Source: a virus. From it: DNA of 47,244 bases. A program made the position numbers and the translations under genes. The stretch's first letter is position 1. Each line of letters opens with the position of its first letter. The stretch spans positions 1 through 47,244 of the IMG/VR virus record IMGVR_UViG_3300033149_005825; one strand, written 5' to 3'. The notes beneath the pieces were generated by a model. The model saw nothing but the letters and a program-made list of their open reading frames with translations, had not been told where the DNA came from and searched no databases. Below are positions 3,793 through 8,075 of the stretch, piece by piece.

Positions 3793-3821
3793 ATTATACA
3801 CAAATTTCCAAAAAGTGTCAA
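3793..3821 (-). promoter_or_regulatory. Sigma70-type early promoter P1
   Basis: On the minus strand a consensus TTGACA (3816-3821) is followed after exactly 17 bases by a consensus TATAAT (3793-3798). The -35 box contains the TGA stop of the upstream HTH gene (ACT TGA CA). The first downstream start is at 3760. Flanking bases ACTTGACACTT and TTGTGTATAAT are shared with the promoter at 31609-31637. Confidence 0.85.
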
Positions 3822-3985
3822 GTCCCCTTGTCCTCACTTTGGATTATCTGATTAACCCGCTGGCGAGATAGATTTAACAGTCTCGCCACATCTGCCTGCC
3901 TCCAACCCTCAATATAAATAAGATATTTAACCAACTTAACTCTAAAGTCATTTAACCTTTTGTCTCTTTCTTCTTTCTTTCCCAT
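3818..3985 (-). CDS. Possible separately translated 55-aa HTH protein
   Basis: In the same frame as the HNH gene, an internal ATG at 3983-3985 follows AAAGGAGG with ideal spacing. Translation from here gives a 55-residue protein with a compact HTH (GWRQADVARLLNLSRQRVNQI), the size of a small phage repressor or activator. It lies between promoters P2 and P1. Whether this internal start is used cannot be decided from sequence alone. One reading is that an HNH gene became fused upstream of an older small regulator. Confidence 0.4.
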   Translation of the reverse strand: MGKKEERDKRLNDFRVKLVKYLIYIEGWRQADVARLLNLSRQRVNQIIQSEDKGT

Positions 3986-4519
3986 CTCAATGCCTCCTTT
4001 TATTTTGTTAAATCTTGGTCGTCTTTTAATATTCCACTTTTTTAGAATGCGATATACCGTTCCAGGAGTAATACCATATTCTTTAGCTAATTCAATTCCA
4101 TTTTCTCCCTTGGTATATCTATTACACATCTCAAGCTGAATTTTTACTCCATTACCTTTTTTATGTTTAACCAGATGACAAGAAGCACAAAGTATTTGAA
4201 CATCGTCCAAAGATGTAGCGGGATATTTTATATGATGAATATGAAGATTTTTAGTGCTTCCACATTCTTCACATTGTTTTTTAAAAGGTAGGAGAAATTT
4301 CGCCAAAGTAGGCTTAGATTCTTTTCCTGTCTTCTTTACATAGTCAAAATACTCATCAAGTGATTTCCACTTTAACCTTCTTCTTCTTGCGTATCTTGGC
4401 AAATGATATTTCTCCATTACCTGTCGAACACGTTCCCTTGTAACCCCAAACATATCGCCTATTTCTTGTAAAGTCTTTCCTTCCTCATAATAAAGCTTTG
4501 CAAGCATCTTTCTATCCAT
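3818..4519 (-). CDS. HNH endonuclease with flanking helix-turn-helix domains, 233 aa
   Basis: Residues 1-40 form a sigma-region-4-like HTH (KTLQEIGDMFGVTRERVRQVME). Residues about 80-118 form a zinc-bound HNH nuclease (CEECG, HIHHIKYP, CASCH). A second HTH follows at about 140-165 (IELAKEYGITPGTVYRILKKW), and a third at the C-terminus (RQADVARLLNLSRQRVNQII). This is a typical free-standing, homing-type HNH layout with DNA-recognition repeats. It is expressed from P2 and its stop lies in P1. The last 55 codons carry their own strong ribosome site and may form a separate protein (see 3818-3985). Targets are unknown; it could also act as a regulator of the two flanking promoters. Confidence 0.8.
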   Translation of the reverse strand: MDRKMLAKLYYEEGKTLQEIGDMFGVTRERVRQVMEKYHLPRYARRRRLKWKSLDEYFDYVKKTGKESKPTLAKFLLPFKKQCEECGSTKNLHIHHIKYPATSLDDVQILCASCHLVKHKKGNGVKIQLEMCNRYTKGENGIELAKEYGITPGTVYRILKKWNIKRRPRFNKIKGGIEMGKKEERDKRLNDFRVKLVKYLIYIEGWRQADVARLLNLSRQRVNQIIQSEDKGT

Positions 4520-4603: not shown

Positions 4604-5635
4604 TCAAAACCTCTGGAGCAATTCATTTAAGGAAGGATAAACAAAAACAAAATGTTTATCTGGATGGAATACTACGGTAGGAACTCCAATAATACCAGGC
4701 GTCCACCATCTTTTTGCGTATCCATCGTCAGTTTGAAAAGTGCCCACTTGGATAAGGCACTTAGGCTTTCCATATTCGTAAAACCATTGGACGGCAGGCT
4801 GATGTCGGTGGGCACCCACAATTACATCTGCAAATGGGGCATTCCACTTCAGCTCTCTGTTCATAGGGTGATTGGGATTATAAATTGAATGCCCCTTAAA
4901 TTCGTGAGAGAGCCTGATTATGTATTTTTCTTTCCCAACGATGAGATTGAGAGTTCCTTTCCCATTAAAATAAATTAAATGCTCTGATAGTAAGTTCTTA
5001 ATGGTACTCTCTCCGTAGAGACGCTCATCTCTTTCTATATCATGATTGCCCCAGCAAGCAGCGATCCACTTCTTTTTTTGTATAAATTCATTTAGGATAG
5101 AAGAGAGTATAATTCTTTGCTCTTTAGGCGAGGCAATTTGGGAAAGAATGGGTTGGAGAGAGCGGAAAGAGCGAAAGTTATCTATAAGGTCTCCTACAGT
5201 AATCATATATACTCTATCGGTATTTAGAATTGTATCTAAGTTATGCTGGAGTTCTTTGTAATCCACTGAGACAGAACCCATATGCCAATCCGCTGAGAAA
5301 ACCACTGCTATCTTTTTCTCTGTTTCAATTTTTACTGTAGCCTCGTCTTGAGAGGAGCTTGTTTTTTGATGGAGTTCCTGTCTTTTTTGAAGATTATCGA
5401 ACCACTCGCGCCAATTAATATTTTCTGCTCGTTTCTTATCTATAAAGACAGGTTCAGGTAAAGCGTTCTTAGGGGAAAGTTGTTTTCGGAAAAATAGAGG
5501 TTTAGTTAAGCCAAGTAAGCGTCTTTTCTTGCGGACACTGGCAGGAGTTGTTCCAATTTCTTCGGCAAGCTCTTTATCGGTGAGTTTAGAATAATTTTCT
5601 TTTAAGAATTCTATCTTTTCTTCGCTCCATTTCAA
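4604..5635 (-). CDS. Calcineurin-like metallophosphoesterase with N-terminal HTH, 343 aa
   Basis: Residues 1-45 form a SANT/HTH-like DNA-binding segment (WSEEKIEFLKENYSKLTDKE, then GTTPASVRKKRRLLG). From about residue 108 it has the full metallophosphoesterase signature: ADWHMG, GDLIDN, GNHD, a middle His in RLSHEFKGHS, and GAHRHQ. The family binds two metal ions and cleaves phosphoesters; phage members may act on nucleic acid or nucleotides. The start is TTG at 5633-5635, since no in-frame ATG is near. A TnpB element is inserted exactly at the bases that form this start and its ribosome site; the element's own end supplies the current AAAGGAG. Confidence 0.88.
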   Translation of the reverse strand: MKWSEEKIEFLKENYSKLTDKELAEEIGTTPASVRKKRRLLGLTKPLFFRKQLSPKNALPEPVFIDKKRAENINWREWFDNLQKRQELHQKTSSSQDEATVKIETEKKIAVVFSADWHMGSVSVDYKELQHNLDTILNTDRVYMITVGDLIDNFRSFRSLQPILSQIASPKEQRIILSSILNEFIQKKKWIAACWGNHDIERDERLYGESTIKNLLSEHLIYFNGKGTLNLIVGKEKYIIRLSHEFKGHSIYNPNHPMNRELKWNAPFADVIVGAHRHQPAVQWFYEYGKPKCLIQVGTFQTDDGYAKRWWTPGIIGVPTVVFHPDKHFVFVYPSLNELLQRF

Positions 5636-5720
5636 TTGGCTTCTCCTTTGATAAATATAATATATTTAATCGTCTCCTAAGCGGCTAAGATCCCCGTTCG
5701 TAAGAGCGGGATACAGCCAC

Positions 5721-5748
5721 TTGACTTTTTCTCCAGGTAGTATAAAAT
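5721..5748 (+). promoter_or_regulatory. tnpB: Possible tnpB promoter
   Basis: TTGACT (5721-5726) is followed after 14-16 bases by TATAAA/TAAAAT (5741-5748), ending just before the tnpB ATG at 5755. No ribosome site lies between, so the transcript would be almost leaderless. Spacing is short for the best -10 match, so confidence is moderate. Confidence 0.45.
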
Positions 5749-5754
5749 ATAACT

Positions 5755-6906
5755 ATGCTTACAATAAAACTTAAAATTAAAAGACCAACAAGAAATAAAC
5801 TTCATAGTCTTGAAGAATACTGTCAAGAATTCTCTTCTTGTGTTAACTGGTATCTTGAAAAACTGCAGAAAGAGAAAACCACCAGTAGGGTAAAAATTCA
5901 CAAACTTTACTACAAAGAAGCAAGGAATAAATTTAATCTTCCTTCAGCTAACCTACAAGTTGCTCGGGATAAGGCAATAGAGATACAGCGATCATATCTT
6001 CGCAAAAAAGGTAAAAAGTCAAAACCAAAACTCCACAGTTTAATAGGCTGTTTTCGCAAAGACACAATTAAAAGAGGAAATAACGCTATTAGATTAACCT
6101 TAAACCGCAAAAGAATTTGGCTTCCCTTAACAATTCCCGAACGATATAAGAATGAATTTAATCTACCAATAGCTCGTTCCGAAGTTAAAGAAGTCAGAGG
6201 TAAATGGTTTCTATATTTAACTGTCAAAGATATGCCAGAAGCTCAAAGGCAGCCTTCTAATATTTTAGGTGTTGATTTAGGTATAGCGAAGATAGCTACT
6301 GTATCCAATCCAGAAGGTTCAATAAATATGTTCTTTAGAGGAGAACTCATAAGATTTAAAAGAAATTATTTTCTCAAAAAACGAAAAGAATTACAAGAGA
6401 AAAAGGATAAAAAGATATGTAAAAACGCTTGGCGCACACTTAAAAGACTCTCTGGCAAAGAACATAGATGGATAACTGACTTAAATCATAAGATAAGCCG
6501 TGCTATTGTTAATAAAGCTAAAGAAACTAATTCTGCTATTGCCTTAGAAAATCTTTCGGGCATAAGACAAAGAATTAAAGCAATTAAGAAAGTTCGTAGA
6601 ATGCTTCATAATTGGCCTTTCAGACAATTAACAAATTTTATAGAATATAAGGCTCGCTTGGCTGGGATACCGATTGTATCGGTCGATCCTCGGAAAACCT
6701 CAAGAATTTGTCCTAAGTGTGGCAATGAGGAGAAGAGGAATCGGAAGTCCCAGTCCAAGTTTAAATGCTCAAATTGCGGGTATTCGCTCAACGCAGATCT
6801 CATAGGTGCTCGCAATATTGCATTAAGAGCCACTTCTCAGTTGGTATATCCTTCTGAGAATGCGGGGCTTGACACTCCGCTAATGAAGTCTACTTCAACC
6901 TCGTAA
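5755..6906 (+). CDS. tnpB: TnpB RNA-guided nuclease (IS605 OrfB family), 383 aa
   Basis: A full-length TnpB. An N-terminal beta/helical region (residues 1-165) is followed by the split RuvC nuclease: D174 in GVDLGIAKIATVS, E265 in ALENLSGIR and D348 in NADLIGARN. A CxxC...CxxC zinc finger (C319, C322, C338, C341) lies between the last two. All catalytic residues are present. TnpB proteins use an RNA made from the 3' end of their own element to cut target DNA beside a short motif, which favours retention of the element. The gene is on the strand opposite to the surrounding phage genes, has no ribosome site and has a promoter-like sequence ending nine bases upstream. Confidence 0.95.
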   Translation: MLTIKLKIKRPTRNKLHSLEEYCQEFSSCVNWYLEKLQKEKTTSRVKIHKLYYKEARNKFNLPSANLQVARDKAIEIQRSYLRKKGKKSKPKLHSLIGCFRKDTIKRGNNAIRLTLNRKRIWLPLTIPERYKNEFNLPIARSEVKEVRGKWFLYLTVKDMPEAQRQPSNILGVDLGIAKIATVSNPEGSINMFFRGELIRFKRNYFLKKRKELQEKKDKKICKNAWRTLKRLSGKEHRWITDLNHKISRAIVNKAKETNSAIALENLSGIRQRIKAIKKVRRMLHNWPFRQLTNFIEYKARLAGIPIVSVDPRKTSRICPKCGNEEKRNRKSQSKFKCSNCGYSLNADLIGARNIALRATSQLVYPSENAGLDTPLMKSTSTS

Positions 6907-6965
6907 GTTCCCTTAGGGAATTTCCTTCCGTAAGGAAGGGAGAGGATGTCAACCCACTTCAATTG
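6750..6965 (+). ncRNA. Likely omega RNA (guide RNA scaffold) of the TnpB element
   Basis: In this family the guide RNA covers the 3' end of tnpB and the element's right end and reads its guide from the flanking DNA. Here the right end has two stem-loops after the stop codon and then GGATGTCAA before the boundary. The guide would start at about 6966 and read the phage sequence AGCCTCCTTATACCC and beyond. The 5' limit is estimated. Confidence 0.5.
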
Positions 6966-6972
6966 AGCCTCC

Positions 6973-7170
6973 TTATACCCATTGGCCCAATGCTGTGATT
7001 TTTATTTTCCAGCTGAATCCCGCTCCTCCGTCAACAGCTATCTCGCTACTTTTGTTTAGAGCTTGCGCCATCTGTTTTAGACTCTGGAGAAATTGAGTGA
7101 TGGTCCGGATGCTCTCTTTATCAGGGAAATAATCGATTTCCAGCTCTGAATATATGGGTTTATTCTCCAT
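6973..7170 (-). CDS. Hypothetical protein, 65 aa
   Basis: I choose ATG 7170 (MENKPIYSELEIDYF) behind GAGGG. The open frame reaches 7191 with a TTG, which is less well placed. The product has a helix (SIRTITQFLQSLKQMAQALN) followed by strands. It overlaps the upstream gene by 11 bases. Its TAA is embedded in the TAAGGAGG that was the ancestral ribosome site of the phosphoesterase gene before the IS insertion. Function unknown. Confidence 0.7.
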   Translation of the reverse strand: MENKPIYSELEIDYFPDKESIRTITQFLQSLKQMAQALNKSSEIAVDGGAGFSWKIKITALGQWV

Positions 7171-7454: not shown

Positions 7455-8075
7455 TTAGTTTTGTTCTGGCTTCAAGTTTTCTCTTAACCTATACTGTCTA
7501 TTTAGGAATCGCTTTAATCTCAAATATTTTTGCAAATAAGCAAACTTACCATTTTCATATGCTGTGACCATCATATGACAAGAATTACATATCCATATTC
7601 CCTTTGATGGATTTTTATCATCCCAATGGTGATATGAAAGTTGCTTTATATTACTTCTTCCGCATAGTTCACAGTATCCAGTCCAATTCCTTTTATTTAA
7701 TTTTCTAAAATATCTACCACCCGATCCTATTACTCGTATTCTTTGTTTAGCTATTATTTCTTCTTTATGTTTCCTATAATACTCTCTCTGCCGTTGTTTT
7801 TCTCTTTCTCTATTTTTCTCATAATATTCTCTTCTATATCGTGATATTCTTTCTCTATTATTTTTTTTATAATTTTTAGCATAATTCAATTTTTCCTCTT
7901 TGTGTTTTTTATAATAATTTCTGTAATAATTTAATTTTTTTTCCTTATTTTTTTTATATAATTCTTTGCAACATTCTCTACACAAGCTGTTTAATCCATC
8001 CTTGTTCCGTTTATTTTTATAAAATGCAGTTAGTGGTTTTAATTTCCCGCACTTAGAACATCTTTTTTGAGCCAC
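7455..8075 (-). CDS. HNH endonuclease with zinc finger and Tyr/Lys repeat linker, 206 aa
   Basis: The GTG start at 8075 follows TTAGGAG. Residues 6-35 form a zinc finger (CSKCGKLKPLTAFYKN, CRECC). Residues 38-110 form a very basic, helical stretch of repeats on the theme YYRKNKE. The C-terminal part is an HNH-like nuclease (CELCG, LSYHHWDDKNP, CNSCHMMV). This is the usual look of a free-standing phage HNH homing nuclease. It follows the lysin gene and has no obvious role in lysis, so it is probably an insertion. Its A/T-rich composition exceeds that of its neighbours. Confidence 0.82.
   Translation of the reverse strand: MAQKRCSKCGKLKPLTAFYKNKRNKDGLNSLCRECCKELYKKNKEKKLNYYRNYYKKHKEEKLNYAKNYKKNNRERISRYRREYYEKNREREKQRQREYYRKHKEEIIAKQRIRVIGSGGRYFRKLNKRNWTGYCELCGRSNIKQLSYHHWDDKNPSKGIWICNSCHMMVTAYENGKFAYLQKYLRLKRFLNRQYRLRENLKPEQN

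What the first reader, a model, noticed from the sequence alone, without database searches (positions are those of the whole stretch)
5631..6973. TnpB element inserted on a ribosome site and start codon, and replacing it
Removing 5639-6965 joins the stop codon of the 65-aa gene to TAAGGAGG, CTCAA and the TTG start of the phosphoesterase, a perfect phage junction. The element's left end provides a new AAAGGAG read from the minus strand, seven bases before the same TTG, so the host gene stays translatable. This is a neat example of near-neutral insertion by end-sequence mimicry of a ribosome site, and TTCAATTG is the likely target motif.
Basis: seen in the sequence. Interest (0 to 1): 0.7.

Follow-up and report, generated by a model that had tools for sequence, protein, structure and literature searches.

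The report
TnpB jumping element beside phage gene
A phage carries an ordinary RNA-guided TnpB jumping element just upstream of one of its genes, and the gene's ribosome-binding site most likely belongs to the phage rather than being copied by the element; related elements elsewhere, however, often sit exactly on a neighbour's start codon.

Summary
A TnpB gene without a TnpA partner (IS1341-type, 5755-6906) sits between two minus-strand phage genes. About 90 relatives show how such ends are built: a subterminal hairpin, a 4-nt guide at its foot and a paired 4-nt cleavage site, as in IS608. In relatives this pairing holds far beyond controls. Applied here, the right end is TCAA 6949-6952 (guide GAAT) and the left end lies at about 5671 (+/-1), not 5639. 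So both TTCAATTG copies and the AAAGGAG before the phosphoesterase TTG lie outside the element; the ribosome site is most likely the phage's own. No empty site was found in IMG/VR, so this rests on homology of ends. The flanking similarity (11 of 12 nt) stays unexplained (10 of 400 random zone pairs match as well). Their left cleavage site, TCAT/TCAC, is the complement of ATGA/GTGA: at 17 of 39 sites it looks like the divergent neighbour's start codon, against 18 of 251 nearby control sites. In close relatives L149 and L159 the left tip supplies AAAGGAG.

The parts
5755..6906 (+). tnpB, 383 aa RNA-guided endonuclease of IS200/IS605 (IS1341-type: no tnpA in the record)
   Evidence: PF07282 E 1.1e-22, PF01385 E 5.4e-13; RuvC D174, E265, D348 and Cys4 319/322/338/341 present; no PF01797 in the record
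5671..5754 (+). left end of the element (first base 5671, +/-1)
   Evidence: hairpin and guide spacing as in relatives and IS608; the pairing is not perfect, so inferred
5667..5670 (+). left cleavage site / TAM, TAAT (alternative TTAA 5666-5669)
   Evidence: 15 nt before guide TAAG 5686-5689; first two pairs and A fit, last is a G-T wobble
5686..5689 (+). left guide TAAG at the foot of the hairpin
5690..5712 (+). left-end hairpin ATCCCCGTTCGTAAGAGCGGGAT, inside a further stem 5679-5686 / 5715-5722
   Evidence: fold
5721..5748 (+). promoter-like site for tnpB (TTGACT-16-TAAAAT) inside the left end
   Evidence: the region has 5 such sites against 3.4 in shuffles, so weak
6907..6952 (+). right end: guide GAAT 6918-6921, hairpin 6922-6941, cleavage site TCAA 6949-6952
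   Evidence: exact IS608 GR/CR pair; relatives end at the corresponding place
6953..6972 (+). predicted reRNA guide segment (first 16-20 nt of the right flank)
   Evidence: inferred from the ISDra2 reRNA layout (PMC8612924 passages); sequence
4604..5635 (-). phosphoesterase / DNA repair exonuclease-like gene, TTG start at 5635-5633
   Evidence: phrog_7339 E 3.7e-42
5643..5649 (-). AAAGGAG ribosome site of the phosphoesterase, most likely native phage DNA
   Evidence: outside the inferred left end; phage-like
5631..5638 (.). left TTCAATTG, outside the element
6958..6965 (.). right TTCAATTG, outside the element
6973..7170 (-). 65-aa phage gene upstream; its stop TAA overlaps AAGGAGG (6968-6974)
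   Evidence: no PHROG family for the 72-aa reading of the frame, no relative in IMG/VR

Best explanation
A TnpB-only element of the IS200/IS605 family was pasted, probably by a TnpA supplied in trans, into the roughly 55-nt gap between the 65-aa gene and the phosphoesterase gene. It spans about 5671 to 6952. Its target and TAM is TAAT or TTAA in an AT-rich stretch; it ends in TCAA. The phosphoesterase keeps its own AAAGGAG-7-TTG, so the insertion is harmless because it stopped short of the ribosome site, not because the element imitates one. The reRNA would run from the 3' part of tnpB through the right end into the flank, and would let TnpB cut copies of the phage that lack the element. Shown: TnpB with catalytic residues, end hairpins, the exact GAAT/TCAA pair, no TnpA in the record. 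Inferred: left end to the base, transposition in trans, nuclease activity, nativeness of AAAGGAG.
For: Right ends of relatives stop 4-6 nt after the last hairpin at TGAC, TTAC or TCAG; here GAAT 6918-6921 predicts TCAA and TCAA stands 7 nt after the hairpin, the IS608 pair (PMC5934647 passages). Guide/cleavage pairing in relatives: left 36 of 54 anchored hairpins (guides swapped between loci: mean 13.1, maximum 21 in 1000; offset windows 0-1); right 32 of 85 (swap mean 9.3, maximum 17; offset 1-2); second set left 11 of 15. In matched relatives the left cleavage site ends 13-18 nt (mostly 14-16) before the guide; here that interval holds TAAT/TTAA. Copies with different flanks show the same ends directly. 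L256/L257 give TCAA with guide GAAT on a left end. The right flank starts with C, which IS608 prefers after its target. The phage uses such ribosome sites: 50 of 64 crudely called genes.
Against: No empty site and no close copy of this element was found (the eight TnpBs aligned with it are 31-37% identical). The left guide pairing is imperfect (a G-T wobble), and equally good partial matches occur by chance elsewhere in 5640-5692 when the hairpin position is ignored. The right spacing is 7 nt where matched relatives have 4-6, and the window hairpin lacks the GGAA/GAGGAA frame of relatives.
Confidence: 0.76

Rival explanations
1. One reading: the insert is 5639-6965 (or 5636-6962), cut at TTCAA on both sides; the phage junction was TAAGGAGG-CTCAA-TTG and the insert brought AAAGGAG.
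For: 8-bp exact and 12-nt near repeat at the two sides; the join is a textbook phage junction; a second TCAA (6959-6962) also fits guide GAAT; close relatives L149/L159 do carry CTCCTTT inside the left tip.
Against: Needs about 35 extra nt between left cleavage site and hairpin and 10 extra nt at the right; TCAA at 5632-5635 has no exact guide at 13-18 nt and no stable hairpin behind it (5636-5680 folds at -1.9 kcal/mol); the 8-mer occurs in the window at chance frequency.
Confidence: 0.12
2. The element moved together with flanking DNA from another site, by recombination across the 8-12 nt of similarity, so that both the canonical ends (5671-6952) and the outer repeat boundaries are real.
For: Reconciles canonical ends with the flanking near repeat.
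Against: Needs two events and a donor not found; no match to the junction in IMG/VR.
Confidence: 0.08
3. A fixed element in which TnpB is retained for another role, for example as an RNA-guided repressor of the TldR kind (name from PMC13418256).
For: No TnpA in the record; single copy.
Against: RuvC residues D174, E265, D348 are intact, unlike an inactivated homologue; both ends are present.
Confidence: 0.04

Closest known systems
IS608 (Helicobacter pylori, IS200/IS605 family)
   Same: subterminal hairpins with 4-nt guides 5' of the hairpin foot; right guide GAAT and right cleavage site TCAA identical (PMC5934647 passages); left guide about 15 nt inside the end
   Different: no tnpA here; left site TAAT/TTAA instead of TTAC
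IS1341-type TnpB elements; ISDra2 TnpB for the reRNA mechanism
   Same: tnpB with left and right ends; right end flowing into the flank as a guide (PMC8612924 passages)
   Different: TnpB 31-37% identical to the eight relatives aligned; TAM differs from ISDra2 TTGAT; activity untested
L149 (Meiothermus taiwanensis plasmid) and L159 (IMG/VR) TnpB elements
   Same: among the five best-scoring relatives together with L157, L158, L160; right end GGATGTCA-
   Different: left site TCAC equals the GTG start of the neighbour and CTCCTTT lies inside the left tip; in the window the site is no start codon

Membership tests
TnpB / OrfB_IS605 | RuvC-like D/E/D triad and Cys4 finger | tested here: met
   D174, E265, D348, C319/C322/C338/C341; PF07282 and PF01385 above cut-off
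IS200/IS605 family | subterminal hairpins with guide/cleavage-site pairing at both ends | tested here: inconclusive
   right end exact (GAAT/TCAA), left end approximate (TAAG/TAAT with wobble)
IS200/IS605 family | no target-site duplication; insertion 3' of a short target | tested here: inconclusive
   no empty site found to compare
IS1341 group | tnpB without tnpA | tested here: met
   no PF01797 match in the 47244-base record; the same search rings in 5 of 14 control genomes
RNA-guided TnpB nuclease | reRNA and TAM-dependent cleavage | not testable with these tools
   needs biochemistry; no Rfam family matched the region (one match, far below its gathering score)
   CTCCTTT 5643-5649 lies outside the inferred left end 5671; the inferred tip itself has AGGAG but no start codon at its cleavage site

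The most novel reading that the evidence does not exclude
In a broad branch of TnpB elements of phages and plasmids the 4-nt DNA target, which is also the TAM, is TCAT or TCAC, the complement of a start codon plus A (ATGA, GTGA). Such elements preferentially insert or survive exactly on the start codon of a divergent gene, leave that codon intact and replace what lay before it with their left tip, which in some elements carries AAAGGAG or GGAGG. Target tetranucleotide plus left tip would act as a portable translation start. The window itself is not an example of the start-codon rule.
Probability: 0.35. Interest if true: 0.7.

Novelty: new member of a known kind. Interest (0 to 1): 0.4.

Why it matters
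The element itself is ordinary. The useful results are a way to estimate the ends of orphan TnpB elements from one copy, by the guide/cleavage pairing known from IS608, and the observation that in many relatives the transposase target coincides with a neighbour's start codon. If the latter holds in a larger sample, it helps explain how TnpB elements persist in gene-dense phage genomes and predicts which TAMs are tolerated there.

Tried and rejected
Phosphoesterase, 65-aa protein and an 18-mer of the right-hand junction as queries in IMG/VR: no relative, no match. TnpB as single query in IMG/VR and genome contigs: one and 40 distant hits, the latter too far to use. A right-end 17-mer in IMG/VR: six hits, by the look of them chance, in other coding sequence. 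Phage relatives found by terminase (best colinear one G002) showed no match to the phosphoesterase or to the TnpB in 0 of 20 records each and none to PF07282 in 0 of 10; window ORFs compared. A 15-aa reading frame appears if the left end is 5669, but not if it is 5670; I dropped it as too dependent on one base. The first automatic choice of left hairpins, without an anchor, gave 23 of 83 code matches (swap mean 4.8, maximum 12) because it often took the wrong hairpin; the anchored version is reported, and the anchor was chosen after seeing these ends.

Against the tip idea: a Shine-Dalgarno core stands in 11 of 34 distinct left tips (shuffles 1.8, 0 of 2000 as high) and in 11 of 40 after merging families and adding the second set (shuffles 2.2, 0 of 5000), but a control stretch 50-65 nt inside the element has it in 9 of 41, against 3 of 41 at 70-85 and 1 of 41 in the flank, so it is not specific to the tip. 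The second set alone gave 3 of 9 (133 of 5000 shuffles as high). Of the 17 start-like sites 6 have such a tip and 11 have none. Some right ends used in the start-codon test look doubtful (L157, L158, L213). Five near-identical loci were dropped before counts (L160, L171, L203, L181, L183); five loci on contigs already used (L238, L242, L247, L248, L250); also L254 and, for tips, the sister copies L159, L168, L172, L173, L174. The thresholds of the start-codon test (60 codons open, stop within 30 upstream) are one of nine combinations tried, all with P of 0.0008 or lower. The simplest cause of the start-codon excess is selection for harmless sites; nothing here separates this from target preference.

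Papers: passages of PMC5934647, PMC7290912, PMC9956272, PMC8612924, PMC13418256 and PMC11870625; only search listings for the rest. That I did not see the start-codon coincidence in print rests on the searches in the held open-access library only. The exact form of the pairing rule used in the scripts is partly from those passages and partly recalled.

Full report
What is there. The window is one 47244-base virus record with phage genes: terminase, portal, RecT, replication O-like and cell-wall hydrolase. On the plus strand, 5755-6906, lies a 383-aa TnpB between two minus-strand genes: a 343-aa phosphoesterase-like protein starting with TTG at 5635 (phrog_7339) and a 65-aa protein (6973-7170). 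No Y1 transposase is in the record.

Where the element ends. I collected TnpB relatives: ten loci from named plasmids and phages, 80 from IMG/VR and a later second set. The right ends shown (its output was cut, so not all 90 were seen) mostly follow one plan: a last hairpin, a few bases, then TGAC, TTAC or TCAG, after which sequences part. The left ends follow another: TCAT or TCAC, about 15 nt, four bases such as GAAG or GAGA, and a hairpin. Copies with different surroundings show the limits directly: L161/L172/L168/L174/L173 share TCAC and the element behind it, L153/L154 TCAT, L162/L175/L222 TCAT, L149/L159 TCAC.

These pairs obey the IS608 rule, in which a 4-nt guide at the hairpin foot pairs with the cleavage site (CL TTAC/GL AAAG, CR TCAA/GR GAAT; PMC5934647 passages). 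With the rule c1c2 = complement of g2g1, c3 = A, c4 = complement of g4, the left site is predicted exactly in 36 of 54 anchored hairpins, found among 85 loci after dropping five near-identical copies; swapping guides between loci gives 13.1 on average and at most 21 in 1000 trials; windows further upstream give 0 or 1. At the right it holds in 32 of 85 (swap 9.3, at most 17; offset 1-2); many misses look like a wrongly chosen hairpin. In the second set it holds in 11 of 15 left ends. Rare guides follow too: AAAG with TTAC in L157, GGGA with CCAT in L201, GAAT with TCAA in L256/L257.

In the window the right end has GAAT at 6918-6921, a hairpin 6922-6941 and TCAA at 6949-6952, so the element ends at 6952. 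At the left the hairpin is 5690-5712. Guide TAAG (5686-5689) stands 15 nt after TAAT (5667-5670), with one G-T wobble; AAGA with TTAA is a weaker alternative. The first base of the element is therefore 5670 or 5671. Ignoring the hairpin, partial matches as good as this occur at several other places in 5640-5692, so the left end rests on the hairpin and the spacing as much as on the pairing.

Consequence. AAAGGAG (5643-5649) and both TTCAATTG copies lie outside the element. AAAGGAG-7-TTG looks like the phage's other starts: 50 of 64 minus-strand genes, by a crude call that also counts a few false ones, have a Shine-Dalgarno core at spacing. The gap between the two genes before insertion would have been about 55 nt; gaps of 57 and 84 nt occur next door. 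The insertion is thus near-neutral because it landed between genes.

The wider pattern. Read on the other strand, TCAT and TCAC are ATGA and GTGA. In the first set, 14 of 32 code-verified sites of this kind have an open frame of at least 60 codons from that codon and an in-frame stop within 30 codons upstream in the rejoined flank, against 11.7% of 1923 control TCAY sites (3.7 expected). With the second set it is 17 of 39 against 18 of 251 TCAY sites within 200 nt (Fisher one-sided 4e-8). Several are convincing starts by protein families: L204 matches a phage tail tube family from residue 5 to profile position 4, L192 matches phrog_20383 from residue 7 to profile position 8, L149 has a complete DUF1016_N. 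In L149 the GTG lies inside the annotated gene, whose annotated start reaches into the element. L149 and L159 carry AAAGGAG inside the tip, 4 nt before that GTG. But Shine-Dalgarno cores are also common in a control stretch inside the elements (9 of 41), so I do not claim that tips evolved for this. Selection for harmless sites may explain the start-codon excess. The sample is one protein-similarity neighbourhood, not all TnpB.

Verdict. The element is a new, distant member of a known kind.

Noticed in passing
L149:1363, L162:2303, L172:2372, L177:2317, L204:2393, L209:2375, L227:2391: The left cleavage site of the TnpB element looks like the start codon (ATG/GTG) of the divergent neighbour gene; 17 of 39 sites against 18 of 251 local controls.
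   Followed up: partly
L149 326-1390: The annotated start of the PDDEXK nuclease gene (1390) lies inside the TnpB element's left end; the GTG at 1363 fits the family start.
   Followed up: partly
L159/L160 upstream of tnpB: Two nearly identical contigs (99.9%) differ in the left tip: AGAACTCC against AAAAAACC, which breaks the AAAGGAG in one.
   Followed up: no
window 5721-5748: TTGACT-16-TAAAAT in the left end ends 6 nt before the tnpB ATG; tnpB may be leaderless.
   Followed up: no
window 3818-4519 and 7455-8075: Two further endonuclease-like genes (HNH with sigma-70 region 4 and HTH domains; endonuclease VII-like) lie close to the TnpB element.
   Followed up: no
G002 (IMGVR_UViG_3300033145_001371): Relative of this phage with up to 86% protein identity in colinear genes, in which no match to the phosphoesterase was found.
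   Followed up: partly
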